Below, piece after piece: positions 878 to 35,280 of a stretch of DNA of 43,083 nt. Position 1 is the stretch's first letter, and every line of letters starts with the position of its first letter. The DNA lies in IMG/VR virus record IMGVR_UViG_3300037838_000203, positions 1-43,083 of that record, one strand, 5' to 3'. The translations under genes were made by a program, and so were the position numbers. The notes beneath the pieces were generated by a model. That model saw only the letters and a program-made list of their open reading frames with translations, had not been told where the DNA came from and searched no databases. Origin of the DNA: a virus.

Positions 878-1145
878 TAAAGGCATCTATCGCTTCGGCG
901 TACCACTGTCTGTAGTGCTGTTCGATACGTTCGAAAGGGATCTGATCTCTCTGTGCTATAGGGATACCTGGTAGGTCATTCTTAAGGACCTCTTTGTTGA
1001 TCAAATCAAGTACCACTGTGTACTCTAACATTTTTCCTGGACCTATTTTCTTCTTTGAAAGTTCTACAAATTCATCAAACTTCTTGTCTGGTTTTATTAT
1101 GTACTTCACACAGAAGAATCTTTTCTTGTTGTGTTTACTACCCAT
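870..1145 (-). CDS. Small protein translationally coupled to the clamp loader
   Basis: A 91-residue soluble basic protein (start MGSKHNKKRFFCVKYIIKPD) whose ATG overlaps the 3' end of the gp44-type gene by 8 bp, so the two are almost certainly co-translated. In T4 the position after gene 44 is held by gene 62, the clamp-loader small subunit (187 residues), but this protein is half that size and I see no clear gp62 similarity. It may be a small replication accessory factor or an unrelated conserved phage protein. Confidence 0.75.
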   Translation of the reverse strand: MGSKHNKKRFFCVKYIIKPDKKFDEFVELSKKKIGPGKMLEYTVVLDLINKEVLKNDLPGIPIAQRDQIPFERIEQHYRQWYAEAIDAFIK

Positions 1146-2064
1146 TTTGTAACCTCGCTAGTTTTATCATTACACTTGCTAAATTTATTTCAGGATCAGC
1201 GACGAATGAATGGTCCACCAATCCTTGCTTGATAATTAGCACTGCCTTGTCCTGTGCGTCCTCATCTTTGGATATTATTTCCAAGTTGTCATACAACCAT
1301 CTGTATATCTCCTCACACTCTTCTGGTCTTGCCTGGGCACACACAAGTTTCCTTGCTTCTTGTATCTTGCCCTGCTTGAACAGATCCACCATCTGCAGTC
1401 TGTAGTCCTGTTGTCCTGAATCACCCGATGCCGGTGGCATCAGTTTGCCATCCCTTACATTCTGTTGTAGCATGTTGATACATTTCCTTAGATCAGGATA
1501 ACTCGCTTTCACGTAAGTGTCAAGCACTTCTATGTCCGGCGTAATATTTTCTGTGATAAGAATTTCACAAGCTCTCGCTGTGAATTCTGTCTTGTCGATT
1601 GTTTCCATATGGAAGCCTTGACATCTGCTGTGTAGTGCAGGGATCACCCTATTGGGATAGTTGCAAGTCAATATGAATCTCGCTGACGTGTGATACATCT
1701 CCATCACACCACGCAACGCCGCTTGTCCGTTTGGACTCATGTAGTCTGCCTCGTCTAACAACACATACTTGTATGCTCCAAATGGCATGATCTGTACGAA
1801 GTTGTTGATCTTCTCACGCACAGTATCAACGGAGTTTTCCCTCGAAGCATTTATCTCCAAGATGTCATAACTGCTGACATCCAGTTCTCCGAACAACACC
1901 TTCGCCAGTGTGGTCTTGCCCACCCCTGGGGCACCGCTCAATAACAAGTGAGGGATCGCTTTGTCATCTATCCAAGACTGTATCTGTTGACGTTGTGCCT
2001 CATCTCTGACCACGTACTCCTTTAGAGTCTTAGGCCTGTACTTCTCGACCCATAATTCTTTCAT
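1138..2064 (-). CDS. 44: Sliding-clamp loader large subunit (T4 gp44 / RFC family AAA+ ATPase)
   Basis: This is the ATPase subunit that opens the DNA polymerase sliding clamp and loads it at primer-template junctions. Visible motifs are the RFC-type N-terminus (LWVEKYRPKTL), Walker A GAPGVGKT (residues 44-51), Walker B LLDEAD (102-107), sensor 1 around TCNYPN and the SRC arginine-finger motif (146-148). The length of 308 residues is close to T4 gp44 (319). The start overlaps the stop of the upstream homing endonuclease by ATGA, and a 91-residue gene follows by overlap. The C-terminal third is the helical collar domain. Confident assignment. Confidence 0.96.
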   Translation of the reverse strand: MKELWVEKYRPKTLKEYVVRDEAQRQQIQSWIDDKAIPHLLLSGAPGVGKTTLAKVLFGELDVSSYDILEINASRENSVDTVREKINNFVQIMPFGAYKYVLLDEADYMSPNGQAALRGVMEMYHTSARFILTCNYPNRVIPALHSRCQGFHMETIDKTEFTARACEILITENITPDIEVLDTYVKASYPDLRKCINMLQQNVRDGKLMPPASGDSGQQDYRLQMVDLFKQGKIQEARKLVCAQARPEECEEIYRWLYDNLEIISKDEDAQDKAVLIIKQGLVDHSFVADPEINLASVMIKLARLQNG

Positions 2065-2732
2065 ATTTTTATCCTTTTGCCTTCTAATACTAAAATTACA
2101 TTGTAGTTGTTTTCTTTCACACTGTCAAGTTTTGCTTTGTTGAGTTTTTCAAGTTTTTTGTCTTTACCGTGATTATTCCATGTGTAATTTCCTTTTACTT
2201 CAAAAATCGTGTTATCTATCTTGAAGTCACTGATGTACAACCTTTCTTTCTTGGTAGTAGGATCTTTGTAATAAAAACAAGGACCTCTTTTAACATTGTC
2301 TTTAACGTATTGTATTCCGTGTTCCTCTGCTAGTTCTTGTAAAAAGTTGTATTCGTAGTTACTCTGGAGTAGAATACCTGTATCTTCATACGTCCTCCAC
2401 TTGCCATGATTATCCCACGGATTCTTAGCCCAATGTCTCCTCATGGTTTTTGCTAATTTTTTATAATGCCCTTGTTTTATTCTTGTAGCAGTGGCTTTCT
2501 TTGCTTGTATTTTGGTCATTCCTGAAGCCACTCTTGTTGCCAGACTTTTACGGCCAGCACTTAAATGGTCAACATTCTCACTGAAGTTCTTTCTTTTTTC
2601 GGGACAACTATTATAATGTTTTGAACAACATAACACACCACTCCGGAATCTGTATTGAGCTGTGTTGCCACAACCATACGCACAAGTCTCTTTGGTTTGT
2701 ATGCTAGTCGTATAAGGTTTATGATATTTCAT
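2061..2732 (-). CDS. Free-standing homing endonuclease, PD-(D/E)XK/Vsr-like
   Basis: A 223-residue protein with an N-terminal Cys-rich zinc-binding segment (Cys17, 21, 35, 36, 43), a basic middle with short helix-turn-helix-like repeats (ATRVASG, ATRIKQG) typical of homing-endonuclease DNA-binding modules, and a C-terminal nuclease core. Candidate catalytic residues are Asp169 (YISDF), Glu178 and Lys180 (FEVKG), the pattern of PD-(D/E)XK and EDxHD phage homing enzymes. It is inserted directly before the clamp-loader gene and overlaps it by ATGA. A late-type box (CATAAATA, 2765-2772) precedes it. A role in its own spread by cutting uninterrupted relatives is inferred. Confidence 0.8.
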   Translation of the reverse strand: MKYHKPYTTSIQTKETCAYGCGNTAQYRFRSGVLCCSKHYNSCPEKRKNFSENVDHLSAGRKSLATRVASGMTKIQAKKATATRIKQGHYKKLAKTMRRHWAKNPWDNHGKWRTYEDTGILLQSNYEYNFLQELAEEHGIQYVKDNVKRGPCFYYKDPTTKKERLYISDFKIDNTIFEVKGNYTWNNHGKDKKLEKLNKAKLDSVKENNYNVILVLEGKRIKI

Positions 2733-2764
2733 ACTTTGAATAGATAGTATTTTCTACCCAAAGT

Positions 2765-2772
2765 TATTTATG
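2765..2772 (-). promoter_or_regulatory. Late-type promoter box before the homing endonuclease
   Basis: The minus strand reads CATAAATA, one base from TATAAATA, 32 nt before the ATG at 2732. It suggests the endonuclease, and possibly the clamp loader behind it, can be read from its own late promoter. Confidence 0.45.
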
Positions 2773-2806
2773 ATTATTTTTTGATTCTGTGTAAGATATT
2801 TGTCAA

Positions 2807-3199
2807 CTAGTCTTCTAACAGTGTCTGCATCATGGCCCAGTGTCCTATGATGTTGCTACAATCCAGTTTGAAGCCAAACTCCCTGTCTATGTCTCTCAGG
2901 ATTTTGTTGGCCTTTGCCATGCTCAATCCTGCGTTGGCTGGTAATTGTAGTGCGTTGATTGTTTTCTTTTTAAGTGCTGTCGCGGCCTGTACCCTGTGCC
3001 ATCCATCTGTCAGCAGGTAGTAGCCTGAATCCTTTATGGGTGTGACCAGTATTGGATCCCAGGCGCCTTCTTTTTTCAACTTGTTTATCCATGTTCTCTT
3101 TTCTTTGTTAAGAGGACGAACTGCACCCAGTCCCATCTCTGCCATGGTGACTAGTTTGCTTATTTCTACTATTACTTTTTTGATCTTAATTGGTTTCAT
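2807..3199 (-). CDS. ParB/sulfiredoxin-fold domain protein
   Basis: A 130-residue protein whose centre carries the ParB N-terminal nuclease-like signature: the DPILVTPI strand followed by LLTDGWHRVQAA (residues 63-73), corresponding to the DGxHR motif that binds nucleotide or phosphate in this fold. The C-terminal helices (LSMAKANKILRDIDREF) resemble a ParB-like helical tail but are short, and there is no clear helix-turn-helix. In phages such proteins may be nucleases, CTP-binding DNA proteins or regulators; which applies here cannot be read from sequence. It overlaps the upstream zinc-protein gene by 14 bp. Confidence 0.75.
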   Translation of the reverse strand: MKPIKIKKVIVEISKLVTMAEMGLGAVRPLNKEKRTWINKLKKEGAWDPILVTPIKDSGYYLLTDGWHRVQAATALKKKTINALQLPANAGLSMAKANKILRDIDREFGFKLDCSNIIGHWAMMQTLLED

Positions 3200-3434
3200 A
3201 CTCTATGTTATTGATGTCCTGTATTATCTGCCATTCTGGACCATTTGGCAGTGGCTTCCTGGATGGGTAATCATTCTCGTCTGATATCTCTCTGTACCTG
3301 TTGGCACAAGGTGGACCACAGAATGGTCTGATTATCCTTTTATCATACTTGGTGTCGTGTAGGCTGTCGTACCAGTAAATTGCGTTGTCGAAAGTTTTCT
3401 TGCAGACGTAACAGTTATGCGATCTCTTAATCAT
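3186..3434 (-). CDS. Small zinc-binding protein
   Basis: An 82-residue protein with CYVC near the N-terminus (residues 8-11) and CGPPC near residues 39-43, forming a probable four-cysteine zinc ribbon. It is rich in aromatic and charged residues, with no membrane segment. It overlaps the GroES gene upstream by 8 bp and the ParB-fold gene downstream, so it belongs to this operon. Such small zinc proteins are common phage transcription or structural cofactors, but no specific role can be assigned. Confidence 0.7.
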   Translation of the reverse strand: MIKRSHNCYVCKKTFDNAIYWYDSLHDTKYDKRIIRPFCGPPCANRYREISDENDYPSRKPLPNGPEWQIIQDINNIEYETN

Positions 3435-3870
3435 TGCCCGGCAGTTTGGTCATCTGTTGGGCACCACCCATGTTGATGTATCCTGCCTGCTTCGAGTTGA
3501 ACTCTGGTTCGTCGTCTGAGACTAACAGGATGTCATTCTCGTCTATCATCCTCACTTCTAGTTCCGTGCCCTGTTTCTTGACTTTGAATCCCCTACTCCA
3601 ACGTCCATGCGATACCATAATCCACTCTCCAACTTTGACGTCTTCCTGTTGATCACCAATGGCATAGACCTTGCCCCATCTAGGATGGATTCCGCCCTCC
3701 GATCCGTCATCGTCTGTTAATATGATTCCGCCCTTGGTCTTTGTCTCTCCAAAGTGCATGTCTGAAACTAGCACTCTCTTCTTAAGGGGTTTGATATCGT
3801 TCTCAACGGTGTATTCCTTACCACCGTGTGATCCAAAACCTTTTGCTTGTAAATCTTCTAGTTGTCCCAT
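3427..3870 (-). CDS. GroES/gp31-type co-chaperonin
   Basis: This is the cap that works with the host GroEL chaperonin, probably to fold virion proteins as T4 gp31 does. After a 24-residue N-terminal extension the GroES fold is clear: NDIKPLKKRVLV, then the mobile loop ETKTKGGIILTDD (residues 42-54) that docks to GroEL, WGKVYAIG, VKVGEWIMV and the final DENDILLV strand. At 147 residues it is longer than bacterial GroES (about 97), with extra residues at both ends and a 'GGIHPRW' insertion after the loop. No good Shine-Dalgarno is seen before the ATG at 3870. Confidence 0.92.
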   Translation of the reverse strand: MGQLEDLQAKGFGSHGGKEYTVENDIKPLKKRVLVSDMHFGETKTKGGIILTDDDGSEGGIHPRWGKVYAIGDQQEDVKVGEWIMVSHGRWSRGFKVKKQGTELEVRMIDENDILLVSDDEPEFNSKQAGYINMGGAQQMTKLPGND

Positions 3871-3891: not shown

Positions 3892-4335
3892 TTATTCTAA
3901 TCCGTCAAGTGCCGCATCTATGCCTTTTTTGGCTGTGCTCTCTGCTTTGGGTTTAACAGTCTCGGCTGTTTTCGCAACAGATACCGATTCAACCTTCTTA
4001 GGCTGTGGTGCCACTACTGTCTTGGGTGCTGGCTTTGATGCCACGGGTGTCATTTTCTGTACGGCCTTCACTGGCTCTGCCTTTGGCGCTGGCATTGGTT
4101 TACCTTTGCTCGGCGTGTCACTGACCATGCCTTTTGGTTGTTCGTAGTACTTCTTGATAACTGCTTCCTTAGTGGTTACTATCTGTCCGCCTGCCCCTAG
4201 TACATCTCCCTTGGCGTTTACGTTCATGTTACCAACTGCCTGTACAGACTCGTTGGCCGCTCTAAGTTTTTCTATGTCCACCATACGTCCTTGCATGGTT
4301 CTGTACATTCTTTTTCTGGGTGCTCTTGCTACCAT
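3892..4335 (-). CDS. Conserved phage protein with a Pro/Lys/Ala-rich disordered tail
   Basis: A 147-residue protein. Residues 1-70 (RAPRKRMYRTMQGRMVDIEKL, then NVNAKGDVLGAGGQIV) resemble a short conserved protein of T4-like cyanophages. Residues 70-147 are a low-complexity stretch of Pro, Ala, Lys and Val ending in a short acidic helix. The ATG at 4335 has a good Shine-Dalgarno (AGGAG, 8-12 nt upstream). The neighbours (GroES, structural proteins) suggest a head or assembly role, which is inference. Confidence 0.75.
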   Translation of the reverse strand: MVARAPRKRMYRTMQGRMVDIEKLRAANESVQAVGNMNVNAKGDVLGAGGQIVTTKEAVIKKYYEQPKGMVSDTPSKGKPMPAPKAEPVKAVQKMTPVASKPAPKTVVAPQPKKVESVSVAKTAETVKPKAESTAKKGIDAALDGLE

Positions 4336-4363: not shown

Positions 4364-4897
4364 TCATCTCAAAAATTCAGTGATATCTAAATTGTACAGC
4401 ATGGGATTGATCTTGTGTACTCCTATTAAGAATAAACAGAAACTGGCCACGCTTGATCCTCTCCCTACACCCCATACAATGTTGTTTGCTCTCAACGTGT
4501 CGACAAAGTAAATTAAGAACTGTAACACACGTATGAATTGTTTCTTCTCAAACAGATCATATTCCATCTGCACTTGTAATTTCTCCTCATCGTTCTGACA
4601 TTTATCAAGCAACCATTCTAAGACATTTATTTGGTAATACTTCTCAGGCATGTGCCAGGTGTCGCAGTTCTCCTTGTCAAATTCTGCAGGTTTTGGTCTC
4701 TTGGGTGCTGTGTTGATCACTGGTAGATCTATACCCAACTCCTTTAGGCTGTCTGAATACTTGTCTATGTCGTTAAAGTAGAGTTTTGATATGTCAAAGT
4801 CTGGATCTGTGTACAGTAAGTCGATAACATCCTCTTCTGAGAATATTACATCACCGTGATCATTTATCTTTGTTTTTGTTTTTGTCTTTTCCGCCAT
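4364..4897 (-). CDS. DNA polymerase III alpha-like fragment (C-family, no catalytic Asp)
   Basis: The last 60 residues match the palm region of bacterial DnaE: a hydrophobic helix (FIRVLQFLIYFVDTLRANNI), then GVGRGSSVASFCLFLIGV (residues 143-160), corresponding to the DnaE GRGSxxGSLVAY motif, then INPMLYNLDITEFLR, corresponding to the DnaE DPLxYxLLFERFL motif. The protein stops immediately there, before the PDxDxD aspartates that do the catalysis in DnaE. The N-terminal 120 residues are acidic and not recognisable. At 177 residues against over 1000 in DnaE, it is either an old fragment kept for another purpose or a nucleotide-binding accessory. It overlaps the upstream gene by 38 bp. Confidence 0.7.
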   Translation of the reverse strand: MAEKTKTKTKINDHGDVIFSEEDVIDLLYTDPDFDISKLYFNDIDKYSDSLKELGIDLPVINTAPKRPKPAEFDKENCDTWHMPEKYYQINVLEWLLDKCQNDEEKLQVQMEYDLFEKKQFIRVLQFLIYFVDTLRANNIVWGVGRGSSVASFCLFLIGVHKINPMLYNLDITEFLR

Positions 4898-5507
4898 CTA
4901 AAACCTTTGGTTGGAACTCAAACACTTTAGCATGATAGTCGTGGGTCTTGTCAACAGGAATATTTTGATTGTTCCAACTGAAGTGTCCTGTGTAGATTCC
5001 TTTGTCAAGCTCTTGATCATATGTTGCCGTGTCTGCCCTTAACCACCATGGATCAAATTTACTGTATTTCGCTGAAAACCAATCGGGTCTATCTAACAGT
5101 ATAAGCTCTTTGCTGTCTTTGTCAACCTTGTAGGTAATACCATCGCCCTGCCATGATGATAGTTCGATGTTATTAATAGTGATGACAGAATCTAAAACCG
5201 AGTTTGCTTTACAGAAACACACCGCGGCCATGATCTGGTCATAGGGAGGTTTTGGTAATTCAATGAATCTGTTTGTAGAATTTTTCTTCAGTGTATGGTA
5301 GAGAGGTTCGTCTCTCCATGTTGTAATAGTGTTTGCAAAAACCTGATCGAAAAGATTTTTTAGTCTTTCAAAATAATCAGTCTGTTCTTTTAGACTTGCT
5401 GTGTGTGGCGTGAGAGAAATGTTTAGATTGTATTCATTAGAGAATAGTTCACCGTCGACTATGATTATGCTTTTGAATTTTGTCTTCCAAGTAAAAGTGT
5501 TTGACAT
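4860..5507 (-). CDS. Unknown conserved phage protein
   Basis: A 215-residue soluble protein starting MSNTFTWKTKF. The ATG at 5507 is preferred over a TTG one codon upstream. It is rich in Trp and aromatic residues, has alternating beta-type segments, and ends in a lysine/asparagine tail (KDKNKNKDK) that overlaps the similarly lysine-rich N-terminus of the next gene by 38 bp in another frame. An AGTAAATA sequence 5 nt before the ATG may be a weak late-type box. No family or catalytic motif is recognised. Confidence 0.65.
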   Translation of the reverse strand: MSNTFTWKTKFKSIIIVDGELFSNEYNLNISLTPHTASLKEQTDYFERLKNLFDQVFANTITTWRDEPLYHTLKKNSTNRFIELPKPPYDQIMAAVCFCKANSVLDSVITINNIELSSWQGDGITYKVDKDSKELILLDRPDWFSAKYSKFDPWWLRADTATYDQELDKGIYTGHFSWNNQNIPVDKTHDYHAKVFEFQPKVLDGGKDKNKNKDK

Positions 5508-5519
5508 CAAAACTATTTA

Positions 5520-5771
5520 CTAGTCGATGTTGACCAGGTCGCCTAGGTCTGGTTCGTTCCTTAACTTCTTGTTGTTCTTGTGCCATTCCTCGATACGTTT
5601 CTGTCTGACTGCATCTTGGTATGTCTTAAGTGCTTGTTGAAGATTGAAAAGTAACTCTGGATTCCTGCCACGTCTCGCGATTGCAACTTTTCTCGACAGT
5701 TCTTTGATACGTTTGGAGATGTCCTCCTCGGACATGTTGCCTATTTCTTCTTGTAATGGATGGAAGTACAT
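5520..5771 (-). CDS. Small helical protein conserved in marine T4-like phages
   Basis: An 83-residue, highly charged, mainly helical protein (IKELSRKVAIARR, LLFNLQQALKTYQDAVRQKRIEEW) of a type I recall in T4-like cyanophages next to structural genes. It has one of the best ribosome binding sites of the window (AAGGAGG ending 5 nt before the ATG at 5771). No catalytic motif. A structural or assembly role is suggested only by position. Confidence 0.75.
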   Translation of the reverse strand: MYFHPLQEEIGNMSEEDISKRIKELSRKVAIARRGRNPELLFNLQQALKTYQDAVRQKRIEEWHKNNKKLRNEPDLGDLVNID

Positions 5772-12042: not shown

Positions 12043-14439
12043 CTATACTGCAATTACCCTTCTTATAACTTTGACCACGTGGTCGTTAGTGTTATTTATT
12101 GTGCCCCTGAGTCTTAGATTTCCGCTGTCTATATCTGCTGATACTGTGATAAGTCCTGTTGACGTTCCCACGTTACCAAATGTGCTTACATATGCAGTTG
12201 ACCCGTCATGAACAACATTTGCTTCAAAAATTTCGTAGTTCCCACCAGTAGCATCCACCACCTGAACATTATATTTGGCTACCCTGTATGTTGATGCCGA
12301 TACAGAATCAAGTGTTGCTGATGCCGATGAGGTTCCTCCTGGTCTGGCCAGGCTCACTCTGTATGCGTTCACAGTTGTTGAACCACCCGAAGTGGATGTT
12401 GCTGAAAGTGTCGTGGTAGATCCTGCGTGTCCCACGGTCAATAGAATTTGATCTGTGCCTTTTGATGATGTTAATCCGTATTGTGACACGAATGCATTTG
12501 TTCCGTCACTTACAACTGCCGCTTCGGTTATCGCTGAATGTCCTTCTGATGCGTTGTGCGAAACTATTACATAGTGTGCCGCCTGGTATGACCCAGTGCT
12601 GAAAGTATCTAGTGTTGTGGTTGCACTTGAAACTGTTACATTTCCTATCACATTTATGTTTGTTGAACTTCTGTCTGCTTCGTTGTCTGCCAACCTAATT
12701 CTGTATGCGTGTACCCTCAAGTTTGTTTCCAATCCTGCCGCTTTCAGTTCAAGGTTTGATCCGTTGATGGCCGCTGTCAATGTTATCAGGTCATTGTTAC
12801 CTGTGTTCACTACATTGTACGTTGAAACAAAAGCATCTGTGCCATTATGTACCACTGTTGCCTCACAGTTCATTAATTCTGTCTTAGATGCGTTATTCAC
12901 GGAGATGTAATACTTGGCACCTCTGAACGATCCATGTGCCCAACTGTCAATCACTTCACTGGCACTGTCAACGTCTGTGTTTATTACGACTGCCGCTTCA
13001 TCCTCGCCTGAGTATCCTGTTGAGTCATCGTCTCCTAACCCTATCCTGTAAAATGCAACACTGTTCTCAGGTGAACTACCTGTGCCCAGCAATCTCACTG
13101 ACCCACTACTGATGTCTGCTGTGCTTATTAAGTGATTGTTGGTTCCTGTCTTTACGTCTATGGAAGTTGTTATGAAAGCATCTGTGTTGTTGTGTACAAT
13201 AGAATGTTTTGTGACTTGTAATTCGTCGCTGGCATCATCTCTGTTCACTGCTAGGTACCATGCACTGTCATACTTGGAGGTGGCCCAACTGTCTTGCCCG
13301 ACTGTGCCCGACTCTATCCTGTTGTGTGTTCCTGTCGCTGTTACATGATCTATTTCTGTCAATGATGAAAAAGATATCGTCGTGGAGTTATCTTGTATGT
13401 CCGATACTCCCAGTAGTATGGGCGAAGTGAACCATGACAGTTGTCCAGAACCATTTGTACGTAGTACTTGTCCGGTCCCCCCATCTGCGTTGGGTACATT
13501 TATGCCATTGATCTTTACATATCCAGATCCGTTCGCTTTGAATTCTATGTTATCATTTGATCTGTTTGCTGTAATGACGTTATCCGTGATAGTAACACCA
13601 TCTGCAGTAACGGAAGGATTTGTTATTGAAACAGTTGTGAACGTTCCTGCCGCGGGTGTCGTTCCACCTATCACAGCATTATCTACAGTTCCTTGGTTCA
13701 TGTCTATTTTTGATACTTGTACGGAACCAGAACCATTTGCAGACAAAACAAAGTCGTCATTGGATCTTATCACTTTTATAACATTGTCAGTGAGATTAAT
13801 GCTCGAATCTATAGTCAAGTTGCTGACATTGACCACACCTGTTCCTCCTGGTGTAAGATTAAGATCAGCGTTGGAACTGGTTGCAATAATATTATCGTTA
13901 AACGTCAAGTTGTCTATGGTTGTTGTTCCTACAAATGATGACGCTCCTGATACCGCTAACGTTGAAAGTGTAGCAGTGCTTGAAACATCCAAAGTAGATC
14001 CTAAATTCACAGCAGTATCGAACGTCGTAACGGCAGAGTTTAACGTGCCGTCCACTGATAATGCCTCGTTGATATTTACTGCCGTGGAGTCCGCCGCACT
14101 TATTGAAGTGCCGGCAAATCCAATACCATCAATAATCAAAGATCCTGAACCATTTGGTACGAACTTTAAGTCGTCGTTGGTACGTAAACCCTCGATATTG
14201 TTGTCATTAAACCTTATTGCCGGAAAGGTTACTGATCCTGATCCAGATGGTTTGATCACTAGGTCGGCGTTTGAAGCAGTTGTACTAATGTTGTTCTGAA
14301 TTACATCTATGTCTGATATGACAGACGGCCTTGCGAAAAGTTCCGTAAAATTGTTGTTGATCTTGATCCCAGTTCCTCTGATAGTATCACCTGTACCATC
14401 ATCAGCCTGTGCTCCGATGTTGATTACTTCCTGGGCCAT
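12043..14439 (-). CDS. Large repetitive tail-fibre-type structural protein C
   Basis: At 798 residues this is the largest of the four paralogues. It has the N-terminal module 'QEVINIGAQADDGTGDTIR...KINNNFTELFA', a repeat region like that of protein B, then four tandem copies of the 'Y-x-x-A-x-Y-x-V-x-x-x-(N/D)A...EAxVVHDGTxAFVSxY' domain (roughly residues 370-480, 490-590, 600-700 and 700-798). Tandem end-domains of this sort are expected to vary between related phages if they bind receptors. It starts 2 nt after the stop of the 121-residue paralogue. Confidence 0.82.
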   Translation of the reverse strand: MAQEVINIGAQADDGTGDTIRGTGIKINNNFTELFARPSVISDIDVIQNNISTTASNADLVIKPSGSGSVTFPAIRFNDNNIEGLRTNDDLKFVPNGSGSLIIDGIGFAGTSISAADSTAVNINEALSVDGTLNSAVTTFDTAVNLGSTLDVSSTATLSTLAVSGASSFVGTTTIDNLTFNDNIIATSSNADLNLTPGGTGVVNVSNLTIDSSINLTDNVIKVIRSNDDFVLSANGSGSVQVSKIDMNQGTVDNAVIGGTTPAAGTFTTVSITNPSVTADGVTITDNVITANRSNDNIEFKANGSGYVKINGINVPNADGGTGQVLRTNGSGQLSWFTSPILLGVSDIQDNSTTISFSSLTEIDHVTATGTHNRIESGTVGQDSWATSKYDSAWYLAVNRDDASDELQVTKHSIVHNNTDAFITTSIDVKTGTNNHLISTADISSGSVRLLGTGSSPENSVAFYRIGLGDDDSTGYSGEDEAAVVINTDVDSASEVIDSWAHGSFRGAKYYISVNNASKTELMNCEATVVHNGTDAFVSTYNVVNTGNNDLITLTAAINGSNLELKAAGLETNLRVHAYRIRLADNEADRSSTNINVIGNVTVSSATTTLDTFSTGSYQAAHYVIVSHNASEGHSAITEAAVVSDGTNAFVSQYGLTSSKGTDQILLTVGHAGSTTTLSATSTSGGSTTVNAYRVSLARPGGTSSASATLDSVSASTYRVAKYNVQVVDATGGNYEIFEANVVHDGSTAYVSTFGNVGTSTGLITVSADIDSGNLRLRGTINNTNDHVVKVIRRVIAV

Positions 14440-14440
14440 G

Positions 14441-14806
14441 TTAGATACTCGCTAGTGTGATCTTTTTCCAGATTACTGTTGAACCATCGTAGTTGGCTGT
14501 GCAAACATACAAGTTAGTTGCGTCCCAACTGATCGAACCTGCCAGGTCACCTGTGTTTCCTACAGCAGTTGCAGTTTTCGTGGTCTTGATCACAAGTCTA
14601 TCTGCTTCTATCTGTACCTGTCCTGTACCATTTGGATCCAGTATTATGTTTCCATTTGTATCGGCACTCAATAGGGTGTTGCCTGACATCTGTAGGTCAC
14701 CGGCTAACTCAGCAAAATTGCTATTGACCTTGGTCATAGCGGTACGTAATGTATCTCCTGTTGCTGGATTTCCTGCTGTTCCTGTGTCTATTGTTAATCT
14801 TGCCAT
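14441..14806 (-). CDS. Short structural protein D of the fibre family
   Basis: A 121-residue protein with the same N-terminal module ('DTGTAGNPATGDTLR...KVNSNFAEL') and one repeat ('DTNGNIILDPNGTGQVQI'), then a short C-terminal domain ending 'VCTANYDGSTVIWKKITLASI' that resembles small carbohydrate-binding or fibre-tip ends. It is the first gene of the fibre run, read from a late box at 14820-14827, 13 nt before its ATG. Confidence 0.8.
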   Translation of the reverse strand: MARLTIDTGTAGNPATGDTLRTAMTKVNSNFAELAGDLQMSGNTLLSADTNGNIILDPNGTGQVQIEADRLVIKTTKTATAVGNTGDLAGSISWDATNLYVCTANYDGSTVIWKKITLASI

Positions 14807-23543: not shown

Positions 23544-23771
23544 CTACTTCTTCTTTTTCTGTAAAGTACGTATTTTAGTCTGTAGTCTGATCAGGTCGTT
23601 GTCAAGCAGTCTGACCCTGTCTATGAGTTTGATCAGTGTAGCCGATGTTGAAGACAGTTTGGGTGTGATTTCTGTCGTGATAAACTTCCAAAGGAAGTAG
23701 ATGAAGTATGCTAGGAAGAACACAGCCACAGTTGGGAAACCATAATCGTTTATGAGTGCAACTATGTCCAT
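23544..23771 (-). CDS. Small membrane/coiled-coil protein 2
   Basis: A 75-residue protein with a short N-terminal segment (MDIVALINDYGFPT), one membrane helix (VAVFFLAYFIYFLWKF) and a cytoplasmic-type heptad helix (LIKLIDRVRLLDNDLIRLQTKIRTL) ending in KKKK. The plan matches the neighbouring 93-residue protein (LGLP then membrane helix then coil), so they look like paralogues. A Shine-Dalgarno (AAGGAAGGAG) precedes the ATG. It lies at the 3' end of the secretion block and may form a membrane ring or scaffold, or be holin-like; undecided. Confidence 0.65.
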   Translation of the reverse strand: MDIVALINDYGFPTVAVFFLAYFIYFLWKFITTEITPKLSSTSATLIKLIDRVRLLDNDLIRLQTKIRTLQKKKK

Positions 23772-23815
23772 CTATACTCCTTCCTTTCTAGTATATTGGT
23801 AAACGTAATACATTC

Positions 23816-24097
23816 TCAATCCTTTCGGGCATCGGTCTTGCCGTCCGCTCTGGCCACCCTGTCAGTGTCTATTGGCAGTCCCAGTTGTTCGGAAACTTCC
23901 TGGTCAATTTTAAGTATGTCGTTGTTCATTGTCTTGACCCTGTTGTCCAATTGTGATATCACACTCTCGATGAACTTGATCGATGATACTATACCGTTCA
24001 GTATGTACCTGATTATGAACAGTATGAACACACCCATTCCCACAGTGGCGGCAATTGGTAATCCTAATTCTGCTACTAATTTAAAAAACTGTGTCAT
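23816..24097 (-). CDS. Small membrane/coiled-coil protein 1
   Basis: A 93-residue protein with MTQFFKLVAELGLP, one membrane helix (IAATVGMGVFILFIIRYIL) and a heptad helix (FIESVISQLDNRVKTMNNDILKIDQEV), then a charged tail ending DGKTDARKD. It is a paralogue of the 75-residue protein downstream. Its promoter region is identical over 20 bp to that of the ABC membrane gene at 27826, which ties it to the same late regulation. A holin-like role is possible from size, but the coil suggests oligomeric assembly. Confidence 0.68.
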   Translation of the reverse strand: MTQFFKLVAELGLPIAATVGMGVFILFIIRYILNGIVSSIKFIESVISQLDNRVKTMNNDILKIDQEVSEQLGLPIDTDRVARADGKTDARKD

Positions 24098-24105
24098 TAT
24101 ATGTG

Positions 24106-24113
24106 TATTTAAC
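24106..24113 (-). promoter_or_regulatory. Late-type promoter, duplicated module
   Basis: The minus strand reads GTTAAATA, then CACATATA, then ATG at 24097. The 20 bp 24093-24112 are identical to 27822-27841. The upstream half overlaps the last codons of the cyclase gene. Confidence 0.55.
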
Positions 24114-26034
24114 GCACCAAGGTGTACACATTCACAGGTTCGGTTTTGCCCTTGACTGTGATGCTGTCAACGAATTCAAAAGAGAATTTATCGTCTATAA
24201 CTTTCTTTGTTGCTTCTCCTACTATCAGTGTGTGTCCCAGCGTCTTACTTGCACTCTCCAAACGTGCCGCAAGGTTAACAGAGTCACCTATAACTGAGTA
24301 ATCAAATCTCTGGTCTGATCCCATGTTACCAACCAGTGCCTCGCCGGTGTTGATCCCTATTCCTATCTTGATGTTTGGTAAATTTTCTGCTGACAACTGT
24401 GTGTTCAGCATGGCCAATTCTGATTGCATCTGGGACGCTGTCAGCACCGCCAACATCTGGTGATCCTTTGTGTCCAATGGTGCGTTCCAGAACGCCATTA
24501 TGCAGTCACCCATGAACTTGTCCACTGTGCCACCATTGGCAATTATGACGTTGGTCATGCGTGTTAGGAATCTGTTGATCAGTTTCGTGAGTTCTGTTGG
24601 ATTGTCCTTGTACTGTTCTGATATGGGAGTGAATCCCCTAATGTCGCAGAACATGAAAGTCATGTATCTCGTTTCGCCACCCAGTTTCAATAGGCCGGGA
24701 TCTTTCTGTAACTTCTTGACCATCCGAGGATCAAGGTAGTGTTCGAACTGTTTCTTGATCTGTTGTTTCAATCTACTCTGTGTCGCGAAGTTGTTGTACA
24801 CAGAATGAGACCAAATCAGGAACACTGACAGGATTATCCAAGATGGGTCTACTAGGAATCCTTTGTTTGTATATGCCATGAATGCTCCGTAGGCAACACC
24901 TACTTCCACAAATAATAACAACGGTACAGCCAACAGCACACTGGTTCTCGGCAGTACAAGTATCAACAGCAATAATAAAAATGCCATGAACACTATCTCA
25001 TATGTGTCCGCCTGTGGTGTGCGTAATAGATATTTGCCTGTTAAAAATGTGTCTAGTGCTTGTGCAGATATGTTTTGATCTGTTGTCAGACCATGTGGTG
25101 TGTACTTCAACACACTTAATCCTGCGGCGTCTAGTCCCACAACAATTATTCTGCCTTTTATTTTTTCCTTGTCAAAGTTATCAGTCAGTATGTCTGTGGC
25201 TGATATATTCTCATACATCGACGGTTCGGCATAGTTGATGTACATCTCTGCATTATGGTTCACAGGTATACCTGCCTTCTTGCTCACAAGCACTTCGTCT
25301 ATGCCGTGTTGTTTTGCGATAACTTTGATTCTTTTTGATTTATTTAAAAGTCTAACATTCTCTAGTAGCATAGAGGGATATATCTTATCTCCCACACGTA
25401 TTAACACAGGCATCTTTCTCACGACAGCATCGGGTTCTGGTGAAGTAACATTCACACCCATGCCTGTTGCACCTGCACTGACTCTAGCAGTGGGTGATAC
25501 TATTCCTTCGAATTCATACAGCCAAGGTTGTACAACACCTTTTTCAATGATCTGTGTGGTGCTGGGTAATTCTGTGCCTGTCTCGTTTTTAACACTCATC
25601 ATTAAAATGGCTTTCTTGGATTCTTTAAGAACTATTGAGAACACCGCATCTGTGTCTAATAACACTTTGCCCAATTGCTCTCGCAGTTCGTTGTTCATAG
25701 GCATGGACTTTAAATATTCTGTGCCACTCATTCTGTCTGGTTCAGCAAACAGTATGTTGTAGTTCACCAGTATGGCTCCGTTGTCTACTAGTTTTGCGTG
25801 TAGCATGGCCATCACATGTCTGGGCCACGGCCATTGTCCATATCTTTTTAAATCTTCTTCTGTGACGTTGATCACAGTGACTGAGTCACTAACTTCCTGT
25901 CTCGGTTGTACATATTGGAAGTGATCCCACGTCTTGTATCTCAAGGTCTTCACTGTGTCGCTGTTGTCTATCCTGACCCCTGTCAGCACGACAGCAAATG
26001 CTATGACCATCCATATGCTTGTGAATATCTTCAT
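24109..26034 (-). CDS. CHASE2-domain class III adenylate cyclase
   Basis: A 641-residue membrane enzyme that should make cAMP. An N-terminal membrane helix (IFTSIWMVIAFAVVLTGV) is followed by a CHASE2 sensor domain outside the membrane (about 25-330), three membrane helices (about 335-420: FMAFLLLLLILVL and following) and a cytoplasmic cyclase domain (about 450-641). Catalytic residues are present: metal-binding Asp464 (FCDIRGF) and Asp510 (FMGD), adenine-selecting Lys506 and Asp578 (FDYSVIGD), Asn587 and Arg591 (NLAAR). The ATG at 26034 overlaps the upstream stop (TAATG). A complete cyclase in a phage-like genome is unusual. Confidence 0.93.
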   Translation of the reverse strand: MKIFTSIWMVIAFAVVLTGVRIDNSDTVKTLRYKTWDHFQYVQPRQEVSDSVTVINVTEEDLKRYGQWPWPRHVMAMLHAKLVDNGAILVNYNILFAEPDRMSGTEYLKSMPMNNELREQLGKVLLDTDAVFSIVLKESKKAILMMSVKNETGTELPSTTQIIEKGVVQPWLYEFEGIVSPTARVSAGATGMGVNVTSPEPDAVVRKMPVLIRVGDKIYPSMLLENVRLLNKSKRIKVIAKQHGIDEVLVSKKAGIPVNHNAEMYINYAEPSMYENISATDILTDNFDKEKIKGRIIVVGLDAAGLSVLKYTPHGLTTDQNISAQALDTFLTGKYLLRTPQADTYEIVFMAFLLLLLILVLPRTSVLLAVPLLLFVEVGVAYGAFMAYTNKGFLVDPSWIILSVFLIWSHSVYNNFATQSRLKQQIKKQFEHYLDPRMVKKLQKDPGLLKLGGETRYMTFMFCDIRGFTPISEQYKDNPTELTKLINRFLTRMTNVIIANGGTVDKFMGDCIMAFWNAPLDTKDHQMLAVLTASQMQSELAMLNTQLSAENLPNIKIGIGINTGEALVGNMGSDQRFDYSVIGDSVNLAARLESASKTLGHTLIVGEATKKVIDDKFSFEFVDSITVKGKTEPVNVYTLVR

Positions 26035-26394: not shown

Positions 26395-27120
26395 TTATCT
26401 CTCCTGTAGCGCCATGCCTATTCCGTTGTGGAAAGGTGTTGTCACGTAACTCAATATTGTACGTTCACCTGTGAGCACGAACACGTGTACCTGTATTCCT
26501 GGTACCAGTTGATACTGCATGTCTCCGTTGGCAAAAATTTGTGAATCTAATTCTAATTCTATCTCGTAGTAAGACATTGTCTTTCCTTGTACAGCATCCG
26601 GAGATATTCTGATTAGTTTTGCTTTGATAGGTAGATATGTGAATGCTTCACTGCTTGCCAGTTTAATTTTTGCAGATTGTCCCACTTCAACATAGCCTCT
26701 GTCCTTGACTTGCAGTTGTCCTTGCACTATTAATTTTTGATCCAGTGGTACTAGTATGGCTAATGCGTCTCCTTGTTTGACAACAGAGCCTGGATTTTTG
26801 TATGTGAGTTCTTGTATTCTGCCATCTATGTTTGCTTTGATATAGTAAGGCTCATATCCAACTCCTGGATTGATTGTAATTATGATATCACCTTTGTTCA
26901 CAACGGCTCCTTGCTTGTAATGAACTTTTACAATCTCCCCTGTCACCATCGTGCCTAATTTTGTGATGTTCTTCTCAGGTATGACCATACCATTGGCCAC
27001 TGTGGTAATATCAACCTTGGCTTGCCATGCCCACACAAACAGTGTAACAAATAGAATTGTCAACAAAACAAAGAACTTATTGTTTGATGAAACTGATGAT
27101 TTCTGCTGTTGCTCTATCAC
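26395..27120 (-). CDS. HlyD-type membrane fusion protein, short form
   Basis: A 241-residue periplasmic adaptor for type I secretion. It has one N-terminal membrane helix (FFVLLTILFVTLFVWAW), then ANGMVIPEKNITKLGTMVTGEIVKVHYKQGAVVNKGDIIITI, the lipoyl half-motif of HlyD, a second lipoyl half (IDGRIQELTYKNPGSVVKQGDALAILV) and a beta-barrel end. The usual long coiled-coil hairpin (about 150-200 residues) between the lipoyl halves is missing, hence the short length (HlyD is about 480). The start is a GTG at 27120, supported by a strong AAGGAGG site (27133-27139) inside the ABC gene, with a 44-bp overlap. Confidence 0.87.
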   Translation of the reverse strand: MIEQQQKSSVSSNNKFFVLLTILFVTLFVWAWQAKVDITTVANGMVIPEKNITKLGTMVTGEIVKVHYKQGAVVNKGDIIITINPGVGYEPYYIKANIDGRIQELTYKNPGSVVKQGDALAILVPLDQKLIVQGQLQVKDRGYVEVGQSAKIKLASSEAFTYLPIKAKLIRISPDAVQGKTMSYYEIELELDSQIFANGDMQYQLVPGIQVHVFVLTGERTILSYVTTPFHNGIGMALQER

Positions 27121-27853: not shown

Positions 27854-29650
27854 TTAAAGGATTGGATCCACTAGGCCAAGTACCTTGTGCAATTGATATC
27901 TTGCCATCTGCCAATCTATCTGTGCGTTTAGGTACGCAACCTCACTCATTAGATGTGCTGTTTTCATGCCGAACACCGCCATTATGGGTGAGTTACCTGC
28001 TTGGAAGTCTGCCAGTGTGAGTTTGTACATCTCATCATTGATCTCAACTGTACGTTTCAGTGTTTGTAAATTCTTCTCAACCAGCACGTAGTTGTTCCAT
28101 GCATTGTCAAACTGTTCCTGTGTGGTTCTCAAGATGTCTTGATGTCTAAACTGTGCCGCACTCAAACGAGAACGATCTGCATTGGTCATGTGTCTGTTCT
28201 TGAAATTGAATAACTTCCAAGTCATTGTGATGTCTGCTCTCCACTCTTCTTTTTGTGAATCATGTGTATCATAACCACCACCTAGTTCACCGTCCTTCTC
28301 TGTGTAAGACAGTTTGCCGTCTACTCTTGGTTTAAATTCTGCGTTGTCGAATGCCAGTTGTTCCTGTGCAATAGTGATGTCCATGCTGGCTATACGCAGT
28401 GACGTGTTGTTGTTGATGGGTGCACCTTGTACAGGAATTATACCAAGTACATCTGCCAAAGGTTTTGGCATCTCTGCGATGTTGTGTGGCTTCCATCTCC
28501 AGACATTCTGGAATCTCTGTATGGCACTGTCTAGCCCTAGCCTGCTGGTCATTGACAGTGTTTGGTATGTTCTGTACTGTTGTTCAATCTGTAATTGTTC
28601 CAGTTTAGATCCTTCACCTTTTTTGACTTTCTCAATCGTCATTGCCAATGTGATCTTTGCGTTAGATTCCACTTTCTTGTTTGCTTCGTGTGTGTTGTAT
28701 GCTTTCTGTAGATTCAGCCATGCGTTGATGGCCTCTATAACAACATCTTCTTTTGTAAGTTCCAGTCTGTAGTGTGCCTGTTGAGCAGTTGCTTTGGCTT
28801 TGTCTATCATGGCAGTGGTCCTGCCTGCGTCCCAGATCATCTGTGTGACTGTTATTGATTTTTGTATGCCCTGTTTAGAATCGTGTGTGATTGTGTTTGC
28901 AGGATGTGTACCTTTTGCAGGAGTTCTGTCATCTTCCCAGTTGTTGCCAATTGATACAGTTACCTGTGGATAGTATGCTGTGTACTCTGATTTCAATGCT
29001 TCAACGGCCGCTTCATAATCCAGTTCTGCCGCTTTGATCTTTTCATTTTCTACGATCAGTCTTGGTAGCAATTCATGAAACTGCATCCATGTAATTTTTT
29101 GTTCAGCATCTACATCTGCCCATTCTTTCTCTGTGGCTTCTTTGACCAGTTTCTCATCTGCTTTGGCGTCCACTTCTTTTTTAGCAATTTCTTTTTTGAC
29201 TTCTGGTTTCTCTATTTCTTTAACAGGTGTTTCTGCTAGTTTCTTCTCTTCAATTGCTTTCTCAACTTTTTCTTCTACTTTTTCAGCAACATCCTTCTCT
29301 TCTTTTAATTCTTTTACTTTCTTCTCCGTTACAATTACTTGTTGTTCTATCTTCTCAAGTTTTTCAACTTTAGCAGTGGCCTTGGGAGCCTCTTCGACCT
29401 TGTCCTTGAATTTCTTTATGGGATTCTCTTTCTTCTTCTCAGGTGCTTCAACGGTTATAATATTCAATCCTTCGGGTATTTTGGTTCTAATTCTTGTTTG
29501 TAAACTCTCACTGCCTACGCAATTTTCCATCACATACTTTTCAGTTTCTTCAGTAACTTCCCACTTGCAACCTCCACTGTCTTCCGCAAAGACGGCCATG
29601 TTCCAATTGAACATGATTGCTATTAGGATGTAGTGTACGAGTTTTTTCAT
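27854..29650 (-). CDS. TolC-family outer membrane efflux protein
   Basis: A 598-residue outer-membrane channel for type I secretion. It has a signal peptide (MKKLVHYILIAIMFNWNMAVFA), then a Lys/Glu-rich linker (about residues 65-175) unusual for TolC, then two outer-membrane-efflux repeats (about 180-385 and 405-598) with typical helices (IKAAELDYEAAVEALKSEYTAYYPQV, QFDNAWNNYVLVEKNLQTLK) and a C-terminal ...QMARYQLHKVLGLVDPIL. A late-type box (29661-29668) lies 10 nt before its ATG, overlapping the stop of the giant substrate gene. With the HlyD and ABC genes it completes an envelope-spanning export path except for the ATPase. Confidence 0.92.
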   Translation of the reverse strand: MKKLVHYILIAIMFNWNMAVFAEDSGGCKWEVTEETEKYVMENCVGSESLQTRIRTKIPEGLNIITVEAPEKKKENPIKKFKDKVEEAPKATAKVEKLEKIEQQVIVTEKKVKELKEEKDVAEKVEEKVEKAIEEKKLAETPVKEIEKPEVKKEIAKKEVDAKADEKLVKEATEKEWADVDAEQKITWMQFHELLPRLIVENEKIKAAELDYEAAVEALKSEYTAYYPQVTVSIGNNWEDDRTPAKGTHPANTITHDSKQGIQKSITVTQMIWDAGRTTAMIDKAKATAQQAHYRLELTKEDVVIEAINAWLNLQKAYNTHEANKKVESNAKITLAMTIEKVKKGEGSKLEQLQIEQQYRTYQTLSMTSRLGLDSAIQRFQNVWRWKPHNIAEMPKPLADVLGIIPVQGAPINNNTSLRIASMDITIAQEQLAFDNAEFKPRVDGKLSYTEKDGELGGGYDTHDSQKEEWRADITMTWKLFNFKNRHMTNADRSRLSAAQFRHQDILRTTQEQFDNAWNNYVLVEKNLQTLKRTVEINDEMYKLTLADFQAGNSPIMAVFGMKTAHLMSEVAYLNAQIDWQMARYQLHKVLGLVDPIL

Positions 29651-29660
29651 TATGTACCAA

Positions 29661-29668
29661 TATTTATG
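29661..29668 (-). promoter_or_regulatory. Late-type promoter of the TolC gene
   Basis: The minus strand reads CATAAATA, 10 nt before the ATG at 29650, and overlaps the stop codon of the 1209-residue gene. Confidence 0.55.
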
Positions 29669-32600
29669 TTACCACGGTGACCTGGTCTGCTGTGCCTGTG
29701 TAGTCGTCCAGATCCCATTGCATGTCGTATGTGCCATCGTTGTTGTAGTCTATCTTGAACAGTGTGTTGTTGGTCAGTGTTCTTGAGATACTGGCACCAT
29801 TCGTTATGGCACTGATGTCTATACTGTCACTGCCTATGGTGTAGTCCAGTATGACGTCATTGTCACCTGTTAGGTCCGATTGGTTCAGTGCTGTGTACTT
29901 GATCACGTCTGATCCGTTGCCCGTCCATATCTCGTCTGAGCCCGTGCCGGGTGTGAAAGTGTCACTGCCTGTGGTTCCATACATCACCTCCCCGGCTGTC
30001 GTTCCGTTCAGCACACTGTATCCGTCGAATATCAAACTGGTTGCGTAGTGCAGGCTGTTCAGTGCGTAGGCGTCCCAGGCATCGTTCTCTGCAAAACCGG
30101 TACCAATGTAGTGGTCGGCTGGTGTGGTTGAGTAGTACACCGCACCTGCGCCTGCTTCCCAGACTGCGTCCACGAAGTGTCCTGTGTTTGAAGTCGTGGC
30201 CAATCCCAACACGTCCGAGTCAAGGTTGGTCATGTATCCGTGGTTGGTTGCATTACCACCACCTATGTTGAACTCACCCAGATGGTTGTTGCCGGCGTGA
30301 TCGCCATCGGGATCAACGCCAAAATCAGATGTGTCGTCCACCATGATACCACCCGGTCCATACTTCAACAGGTTGCTGGCGTTCTCGTCCGCTATCTGGT
30401 ATGCCGCCGCTTCATTGCCACTAGCACTTCTCGTGGTGACCACGTTGCCATTGTGTCCGGGCAGGTGGGTGTCAAGTGCTGAGTCATTGACCCATCTGTC
30501 ATACATCACGAACACACCACCATCATCGACCCATGAGGTCAGTGCCGTGCTGAATGGACTGCTGTTGAAACTACTGTTGCTGGAGTTGTAGTATGCTATC
30601 ACGTCATAGGTGTCAAGGTTGTTGGCATTGTAGGCCTCCGCAGTGTGTCCAAGTTCTGTGATTATGCCAGCACCATCTCCCGTTCCTGCGTATGCAATCT
30701 TCTGTTTGTAGGCACCCGCTGATCCATCCCCTGATGTTAACCACCCTGCTGGATCGTTGGCACTCTCTGCCACGTCTGTGACATTAACTACTTGGTTGGC
30801 AGTTGTTGTGTTGCCGTTGCTGTCAGTGGCCGTTATCGTCAATGTGTGTGACGTCGCAGTTTCATAATCTAGTGCCGCCGCTGTTGTGATGGCACCTGTT
30901 GAAGAATTGATTGTGAATAGATTTGATCCATTGCCCGCCGTTATTGAATATGTAACTGTTTCGCTCTCTGCGTCCGAGGCCGATATCGTTGACACCGCTG
31001 TGCCTGTGCTGACATCCTCTGCCAGTGACACAGCACTGGTGTTGGATATCTCAGGTGAGTGATTGTTCTCCACAGTGATCTGCCATGAGTCTATGTCCGA
31101 CGCACCATATGGATCCTGCACCTTCAACAGTATCGTGTAGGTCGTGTCCTCAGTGACTGAGAAAGCGGAGTTCAAATAAATTCTGTTGCCTGATATTTTC
31201 AACTTGCCAGTGGGATCATCAAATATCGAAAACGTCAGTTGGTCGTTGTTTGCATCTGATCCATACACGTAACCCAGGGTATCATCCACTGCCAGGTTTT
31301 CATTGACTGTGACTGCGTTGGGCATGTCCAACCATGGGGCCACGTTGACGTCCTGTTCCTCCGCCATGTCCCATATGAACTGATCCATGATGGCATCTGC
31401 CTCTAAGGAATCGTAGTAGGCGTCCTCGTTGTTGTCTATGACGTCCCAATAACTGTCATCCTCTAGGGCATAAAAATCATCAGCATTGTTGACGCCTGCG
31501 CCGGCGCCGTCGAAATACTCATCTATGTATTGAGCTTGGACCACCACCATGTCCTGAACCTGCTGGTCTATGACTTCATTGTCGGGATCCACCTCTTGAA
31601 AGAAGTCGTCCATCTCCTGTGCTATGGGCTCCTCCATCAGTGCTTTTTCTTTTTCTTCCTGTATGAGTTGTTCCACTGCTTGGTCATCGACTTGGTTCTC
31701 TTCATCGACGTTGAACACATCATTGTCCTCATTGAAACCTGGACCGTCTTCTGGATTAACTATTTCTCCATTATCCAAATTAATCATCATGTTGTCTTCT
31801 TCAATCATTTCTTCTAACTCTTGGAATTCTTCGTTGTTTTCCAACTCCTGCATCTGCTCTTCCACGTTCTCCTCAGCGAAGATGTCCTTGGGTTCTTCTT
31901 CGACGATGTCCTGTTGTGCTTCGTTCACTTCATTGAATTCTTCCATGACGTTCTCTTGTACGTCAAGCATCATGTCCTGTGGTGATTCATCTATGAACTG
32001 TTGCAGTTCGTCTGCTGGTATGAAGTTTTCGAACTCTTGCACAAACTGTTCTTGGAATTTTTCAAAGTTTTGTACAATGGCTTCAAATCTCTGCTCGACT
32101 GCTAGAACTTTTTGTTCAACAATTAATTCTTTTTCAATGACCTGGAGAACTTCTTTCTCCACAAACTCCACCTTGGCTTCTATCTCCGCGAAGTCCTCTT
32201 GCACTTCGGCAAATTCTTTCTCTATGTCTTGAACTTTCTGTTCCACGACCGCTTTCTCCTGGGCGACCACTTCGATCTCTTGTTCGATCTGTTGTACCTC
32301 TTCCTCGATCTCTTGAAATTCTTCTTCCAACTGTTGTAGTTCCTGTTCAATTTTTTCTCTTTCTTCAACAGGTGCGTCATCCAATTGTTCTTCTAGTTCC
32401 TCGATTTCTTCTGCAACTTCTTCTTTCTTTTCTTCGGCTTGTTCCTTTTCTTCTAAAACTTGCTCTTCCGCTTCTTCTAACTCTTCGGCTTCCTCTTCAA
32501 GTTCCTCAGCCTCCTCTTCCAGTTCTTCGGATTTCTCTTCAAGTTCTTCTGCCTCTTCTTCTAGTTGTTCTTTTTCTTCCTCAAGTTCCTCTTTTTCTTC

Positions 32601-33996: not shown

Positions 33997-35280
33997 ATGT
34001 TTGAAAAAGAAAAAAAATATTTTCCAAAAATCACAGATCCACAGTGCCAGTTGAAATGGAATTGGTCAACTTTATGGCTCAACGATGGGACTACCAATTC
34101 TTGTCACCGTTGTTTGAAAGTGCCGTTGGATCCGGATAATTTTGACAATTTCCATAATCTACCTTTCAAAATCAAAGAAAGAGAAATAATGTTGTCTGGT
34201 AAATGGCCCACTGTGGAAAACGGTGGTAGTGGTCATTGTAACCACTGTAAGAGGGTAGAAGATTTTGGCGGAACCAGTGACAGGTTGAACATGCTCAAGA
34301 TGCCGAACCAAACGCCCCCTGAACTCTACAAAGATCCAAAGTCCACTTTTGTGACGCCGAGGATCCTTGAACTATTCATGAACGATACCTGTAACCTGAA
34401 GTGTACATATTGTGGACCAAGGGATAGTAGCCAGTGGAAAAGTGAGCTCAAGAAGTACGGAGCACTCACAGACCCCGATGGCAATCCTTCAACAACACAC
34501 GCACCAACATCAAGGGGCATGTTCAAGAGCAAAGATCAGAGAGCGTTAATGGACAAGACCAAGGACTGGCTGTTACGTAACGCCTACAAATTATCAAGAT
34601 TGCACTTGCTGGGTGGAGAAACCTTCTATCAATCTGAACTGGATGAGATACTAGACACTTTGGAGAACGTAAAAGCCAGGGATCTCGAACTGAACATAGT
34701 TTCCAATCTAATGGTCAAGGAAGAACGTTTTAAATCAGTCATCGAACGTATAAAGAGACTGGTGAAAGATCGAAGGATCGGGAGATTTGATCTCTCCTCC
34801 AGCATAGACGGATGGGGGCCGGAAGCGGAATATGCCAGGACTGGACTGAAATGTGATCATTTCGAAAAACTGTTTTCGTACGCTGTTGATCAAAAATGGA
34901 TGCGTCTACACGTCAACATGACCACCACATCAATGATTGTGAAGTCCGTGCCATTGTTAATAGGGAAAATTATGGATTACAGGAAACACAATCCAAAAAT
35001 TACTTTGCGAGCGAACTTCCTGACAGGAACTCCGATACTACATCCATCTACCTTTGGAAGGAAAATGTGGACCAACGATCTAGAAAAAATATTGTCTGTG
35101 TGGCCGAATGAAACCCAGCAAGACAGAAATGCGATGCAGGAGTTCAAGGGTATTTTTGACTCAATACCAACAGAAATGCCTGATGAGAAGATGTTGAGAT
35201 ATTTTAAACACTTCCTAGATCAATTAGATAAGCGTAGAAACACCGACTGGCGGAAAGTTCTACCTCATTTAGATATCTGA
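33997..35280 (+). CDS. Twitch-domain radical SAM protein
   Basis: A 427-residue plus-strand enzyme. The radical SAM cluster motif is CNLKCTYC (Cys132, 136, 139). Two further Cys pairs, CHRC (Cys36, Cys39) and CNHC (Cys81, Cys84), may hold an auxiliary cluster or zinc. LLGGETF and the later [13 protein letters not shown] strand complete the SAM barrel. Such twitch radical SAM proteins recur in marine T4-like phages with unknown substrate. It lies between the full yqgE-like gene (divergent) and the YqgE-chimera gene (convergent, 16-bp overlap). The Fe-S genes elsewhere in the window could serve its clusters. Confidence 0.87.

What the first reader, a model, noticed from the sequence alone, without database searches (positions are those of the whole stretch)
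4364..4897. DNA polymerase III alpha fragment that ends just before the catalytic aspartates
The GRGSSxxSF...INPMLYNL...EFLR order is that of the DnaE palm, but the reading frame stops at the point where DnaE has PDxDxD. The gene is intact and embedded between structural genes. It may be a domesticated fragment that binds host polymerase III subunits (for example beta or tau) to shut off host replication.
Basis: partly seen in the sequence, partly recalled or inferred. Interest (0 to 1): 0.6.

Follow-up and report, generated by a model that had tools for sequence, protein, structure and literature searches.

The report
Half of a split phage polymerase
This gene makes the first half of a very small bacterial-type DNA polymerase that many large bacterial viruses carry in two separate genes; the split was described in 2021, so this is a new example of a known oddity and not a polymerase fragment re-used to block the host.

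Summary
The 177-aa ORF at 4364-4897 (minus strand) carries the Pol III alpha palm motif (GRGSS...INPMLYNL...EFLR) and stops just before the PDxDxD catalytic loop. It is not a chance match, a frameshift or a lone domesticated fragment. It is the N-terminal subunit of the split minimal Pol III alpha of jumbo phages (phrog_11127, E 1e-46), described by Iyer et al. 2021 (PMC7824862). All 157 orthologous ORFs examined stop within 0-3 aa of the same point. The missing part is a separate 190-210-aa protein (phrog_11778) that starts at (M)PDIDIDF and is encoded 11-227 kb away. All 59 listed phage records with the N half also have the C half, as do all nine IMG/VR contigs of at least 180 kb. In AlphaFold models the N half covers E. 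coli alpha 276-393 and the C half 400-809, with GRGS and all three catalytic Asp invariant. The window is a 43-kb fragment without the C half. Overlapping contigs lead to the lineage's primase-helicase module, where a close relative carries it. The likely function is a two-piece, roughly 370-aa C-family polymerase working beside the phage's own family B polymerase. Activity is untested in the papers found.

The parts
4364..4897 (-). N-terminal subunit of a split minimal DNA polymerase III alpha (177 aa, phrog_11127)
   Evidence: PHROG E 1.3e-46; PF07733 E 2.9e-10; 157/157 orthologues end at the same point
4367..4663 (-). Palm part of the subunit, residues 79-177, equivalent to E. coli Pol III alpha 276-393
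   Evidence: AlphaFold model mean pLDDT 86.9; VIA-align Z 10-12.7 to Pol III alpha structures
4451..4465 (-). GRGSS motif, residues 145-149 (dNTP triphosphate-binding motif of C-family polymerases)
   Evidence: G143, G145, R146, G147, S148 invariant in 66/66 sequences
3892..4335 (-). Conserved small gene next to the N half (phrog_14844, unknown function)
   Evidence: present next to the N half in 74/75 loci with enough flank
3427..3870 (-). GroES/gp31-like co-chaperonin
   Evidence: PF00166 E 1e-9; in 74/75 N-half loci
1138..2064 (-). Clamp loader, T4 gp44 family
   Evidence: phrog_168 E 4.4e-78; in 74/75 N-half loci, same strand
4860..5510 (-). Upstream gene of unknown function whose end overlaps the start of the N half by 38 nt
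   Evidence: ORF coordinates; homologue upstream of the N half in 36/36 close relatives, 16/39 distant ones
5520..5771 (-). Small conserved upstream gene, unknown function
   Evidence: present near the N half in 72/75 loci

Best explanation
The gene encodes the N-terminal subunit of a two-subunit, minimal C-family (Pol III alpha type) DNA polymerase of a large marine T4-like phage. This subunit carries the first half of the palm with the GRGS dNTP-binding motif. The other subunit (phrog_11778), encoded about 150 kb away beside primase and helicase in this lineage, starts at PDIDID. It carries the three catalytic aspartates and a short finger region, without the thumb insertion, PHP, beta-binding, OB or tau-binding domains. 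The two halves probably associate without covalent linkage to rebuild one palm. The enzyme then probably acts as a second, accessory polymerase (gap filling, repair or lagging-strand work) beside the phage's family B polymerase. Shown here: homology, conserved split point, complementary coverage of one fold, invariant active-site residues, co-occurrence, genome context. Inferred: assembly in trans, catalytic activity, and the biological role.
For: Family match phrog_11127 1.3e-46; C half phrog_11778 up to 4.7e-108. N model residues 79-177 align to E. coli alpha 276-393, and C model residues 1-191 align to 400-809 of the same enzyme: adjacent, non-overlapping. GRGS invariant 66/66; D3, D5 and D7 present in 64/64 sequences with that region, K66 and D68 in 65/65. 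All 59 listed phage records with the N half have the C half; all nine IMG/VR contigs >=180 kb have both. N and C distances correlate over 19 genomes (r 0.64, no permutation of 5000 as high). The C half in the window's lineage: overlapping contigs G047, G048 and G052 end inside the primase gene, and relative G057 (primase 82%, helicase 78% identical) carries the C half beside it. A family B polymerase is in all nine isolates tested and in close relative G002. The split polymerase was proposed independently by Iyer et al. 2021.
Against: No biochemistry was found in the held papers. The 43-kb window itself lacks the C half. The thumb and clamp-binding parts of Pol III alpha are missing, so processive synthesis would need help. 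No complex of the two halves could be modelled with the tools. Foldseek E-values for the N half are weak (7e-3), though its 16 best hits are all Pol III/PolC.
Confidence: 0.78

Rival explanations
1. The two halves form a complex that keeps the fold and binds dNTP or DNA but mainly serves as a non-catalytic accessory, for example a replisome or primase-clamp-loader adaptor.
For: N half lies with the clamp loader and C half with primase/helicase; a family B polymerase is already present; thumb and clamp-binding parts are missing.
Against: All three catalytic aspartates and the GRGS motif are invariant across very diverged phages, which a purely structural role would not require.
Confidence: 0.15
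2. A domesticated palm fragment that binds host Pol III subunits (beta or tau) to shut off host replication.
For: Short, intact, truncated before the catalytic residues.
Against: The segment equals alpha 276-393, which does not contain the known beta or tau sites; the complementary half is in the same genomes; it sits in a conserved replication/morphogenesis cluster.
Confidence: 0.03
3. A split gene rejoined in trans, by a split intein or trans-spliced intron, giving one covalent polymerase.
For: A clean cut inside one domain and distant halves recall DnaE fracture genes.
Against: N halves end 0-3 aa after the palm sequence and nearly all C halves have the DID motif within about 20 residues of the frame's start, leaving no room for inteins; the stop is followed closely by the next conserved gene. 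Trans-spliced introns were not searched for.
Confidence: 0.03
4. Assembly or frameshift artefact hiding a full-length polymerase.
For: None found.
Against: The same stop occurs in 157 of 157 ORFs from independent genomes and metagenomes.
Confidence: 0.01

Closest known systems
Split minimal DNA polymerase III alpha of group 2.2 jumbo phages (Iyer et al. 2021, PMC7824862; phrog_11127 plus phrog_11778)
   Same: Same N-terminal subunit, same split point, partner encoded far away, family B polymerase also present.
   Different: From an uncultivated marine lineage about 28-42% identical to the isolates; the C half is not on the window and is inferred from overlapping relatives.
Truncated Pol III alpha CBB_328 (172 aa) of phage vB_PcaM_CBB (PMC5259590)
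   Same: Same gene and length; authors noted it looked truncated.
   Different: They did not recognise the complementary half.
PF07733 protein found in 51.9% of PGC_A marine jumbo phages (PMC9123017)
   Same: Same domain; probably largely this gene in marine jumbo phages.
   Different: In the passages read, that paper reports the domain only, not the split.
Bacterial DnaE / PolC
   Same: Palm fold, GRGS motif and, in the partner, DxD and the third Asp.
   Different: No PHP, thumb, beta-binding, OB or tau-binding parts; two polypeptides totalling about 370 aa instead of about 1100-1400.

Membership tests
Split minimal Pol III alpha of jumbo phages, N-terminal subunit | Whole-length match to phrog_11127 | tested here: met
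   E 1.3e-46, residues 6-177 against profile 4-171 of 171
Split minimal Pol III alpha of jumbo phages, N-terminal subunit | Stops before the PDxDxD loop, at a conserved place | tested here: met
   157/157 orthologues end 0-3 aa after the model
Split minimal Pol III alpha of jumbo phages, N-terminal subunit | Complementary C half with catalytic Asp in the same genome | tested here: inconclusive
   Not in the 43-kb window. All nine contigs >=180 kb have it; lineage relative G057 has it beside primase
Split minimal Pol III alpha of jumbo phages, N-terminal subunit | Family B polymerase also encoded in the genome | tested here: inconclusive
   Found in 18 of 22 records, all 9 isolates, and syntenic relative G002; the window itself is a fragment that does not reach that region
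Split minimal Pol III alpha of jumbo phages, N-terminal subunit | The two halves form an active polymerase | not testable with these tools
   Needs biochemistry; not shown in the papers found
Bacterial DnaE/PolC (complete enzyme) | Catalytic aspartates, PHP and finger domains in one chain | tested here: not met
   Pfam match ends at position 94/260 of PF07733; no PHP or finger match
Split-intein DnaE | Intein sequence at the end of the N half and the start of the C half | tested here: not met
   No residues for an intein after the palm in any N half; nearly all C halves have DID within about 20 residues of the frame's start

The most novel reading that the evidence does not exclude
An obligate two-chain, roughly 370-residue C-family DNA polymerase, the smallest of its kind, is active in trans and serves as a dedicated second replicative polymerase next to a family B enzyme in a widespread group of marine phages.
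Probability: 0.45. Interest if true: 0.65.

Novelty: new member of a known kind. Interest (0 to 1): 0.4.

Why it matters
It explains a recurrent puzzling annotation ('truncated Pol III alpha') in large phages. The pair is a natural minimal Pol III catalytic core that can be expressed and tested, which bears on how small a C-family polymerase can be and why these phages keep two unrelated polymerases. The survey here adds quantified co-occurrence, two conserved genome contexts, an abundant marine lineage, and a 141-kb phage with both halves.

Tried and rejected
Searching the window for the C half with two profiles, filters off: only chance-level hits. Searching seven fragments of close relatives (53-103 kb) and the first walk contigs: none. 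This turned out to be because those contigs also lack primase and helicase, beside which the C half lies. Genome-contig scan for longer relatives: the two closest hits are short MAG contigs from alphaproteobacterial bins, too weak to name a host. Fused N+C ORFs: none; the three long-tailed hits were separate intact 566-568-aa DnaE genes.

Full report
Observation. The ORF at 4364-4897 on the minus strand is 177 aa long and contains GRGSSVASF, INPMLYNL and EFLR as described. It matches Pfam DNA_pol3_alpha above the curated cut-off over residues 98-176 (E 2.9e-10), ending at profile position 94 of 260, and phrog_11127 over its full length (E 1.3e-46). The finding is therefore real and not chance.

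Relatives. tblastn against 50,697 phage records finds the gene in jumbo phages such as 121Q, RaK2, CBB, PA5oct/Paride, Atu_ph07, Phosso and SCTP-2 at 28-42% identity. Of the ORFs extracted, 157 of 157 true orthologues end 0-3 aa after the model end and none continues into the rest of a polymerase. The three exceptions are separate intact DnaE genes of 566-568 aa.

The missing half. Weak PF17657 finger-domain hits in 121Q and Phosso led to 190-210-aa proteins starting with (M)..DIDIDF. They form phrog_11778, also labelled DNA polymerase. All 59 listed jumbo-phage records with the N half carry it. All nine IMG/VR contigs of 180 kb or more carry both. The distance is 11 kb in the 141-kb Alishewanella phage Slicko01 and up to 227 kb elsewhere. 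The N half is next to a small conserved gene, a GroES-like gene and gp44 in 74 of 75 loci each; the C half lies near primase and DnaB-type helicase in isolates.

Structure. The AlphaFold model of the N half (66 sequences, mean pLDDT 86.9) aligns over residues 79-177 with E. coli alpha 276-393 and equivalent parts of other Pol III structures (Z 10-12.7 for the best). The C half model (65 sequences, pLDDT 88.2) aligns with E. coli alpha 400-809 (Z 8.5, rmsd 4.0 A). The two cover one fold side by side. The first two catalytic Asp are present in 64/64 sequences with that region, the third in 65/65, and GRGS in 66/66. The spacing between the DxD motif and the third Asp is about 60 residues in the phage proteins; from memory it is about 150 in E. 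coli, so the thumb insertion appears to be gone.

The window's own lineage. The window and relatives up to 103 kb lack the C half. Walking outward: the window's Hsp20-like gene (42561-43010) links to G047, which also has the N half, and to G048. A protein at the end of G048 links at 100% identity to G052, which starts inside the primase gene, followed by helicase. G057, with primase 82% and helicase 78% identical to G052, has the C half beside primase. The lineage therefore very likely has the C half, about 150 kb from the N half along this path, in a genome of at least about 238 kb. This is an inference across related contigs and not one molecule.

Function. A family B polymerase gene is found in all nine isolates, in eight of the nine largest contigs and in G002, so the split enzyme is probably a second polymerase. 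The N and C distance matrices correlate (r 0.64 over 19 genomes), about as well as N with gp44, so this shows shared descent rather than specific contact.

Literature. Iyer et al. 2021 already described this split minimal Pol III alpha in group 2.2 jumbo phages and proposed that the two proteins reconstitute an enzyme. The CBB paper had noted the truncated gene, and a marine jumbo phage survey found PF07733 in 51.9% of its PGC_A group. No experimental test was found in the searches made. The finding is thus a new member of a known kind; the host-shut-off reading is not supported.

Noticed in passing
window 24109-26034 (-), with 26395-27120, 27854-29650 and 29664-33293: A 641-aa protein with CHASE2 and adenylate/guanylate cyclase domains (PF05226 2e-39, PF00211 9e-22) next to HlyD-like and outer-membrane efflux (TolC-like) proteins and a 1209-aa protein; the cyclase is 71% conserved in relative G002. 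A membrane cyclase beside secretion genes seems unusual in a phage.
   Followed up: partly
window 2061-2732 (-): 223-aa ORF with no significant Pfam or PHROG family, between the ParB-like gene and gp44; absent at this place in relative G002 and in all 36 close relatives counted, so probably a recent insertion.
   Followed up: partly
L123 8745-10442, L144 8872-10572, L162 15998-17701; G018 23682-24335: Some phages carry, a few kb from the C half, a separate intact PHP-less DnaE of about 566-582 aa (PF07733 plus finger), so they appear to hold two C-family polymerases.
   Followed up: partly
L014 (Alishewanella phage Slicko01, 141 kb) 2524-3036 and 13875-14486: Both halves lie 11 kb apart in a phage below the jumbo size limit, with a gp44-like clamp loader between them.
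   Followed up: partly
window 33997-35280 (+): Radical-SAM-like gene with many paralogues in relatives G002 and G006.
   Followed up: no
window 37913-38542, 38930-39331 (-): ThyX (PF02511 5e-49) and SufE (PF02657 3e-28) genes carried by the phage.
   Followed up: no
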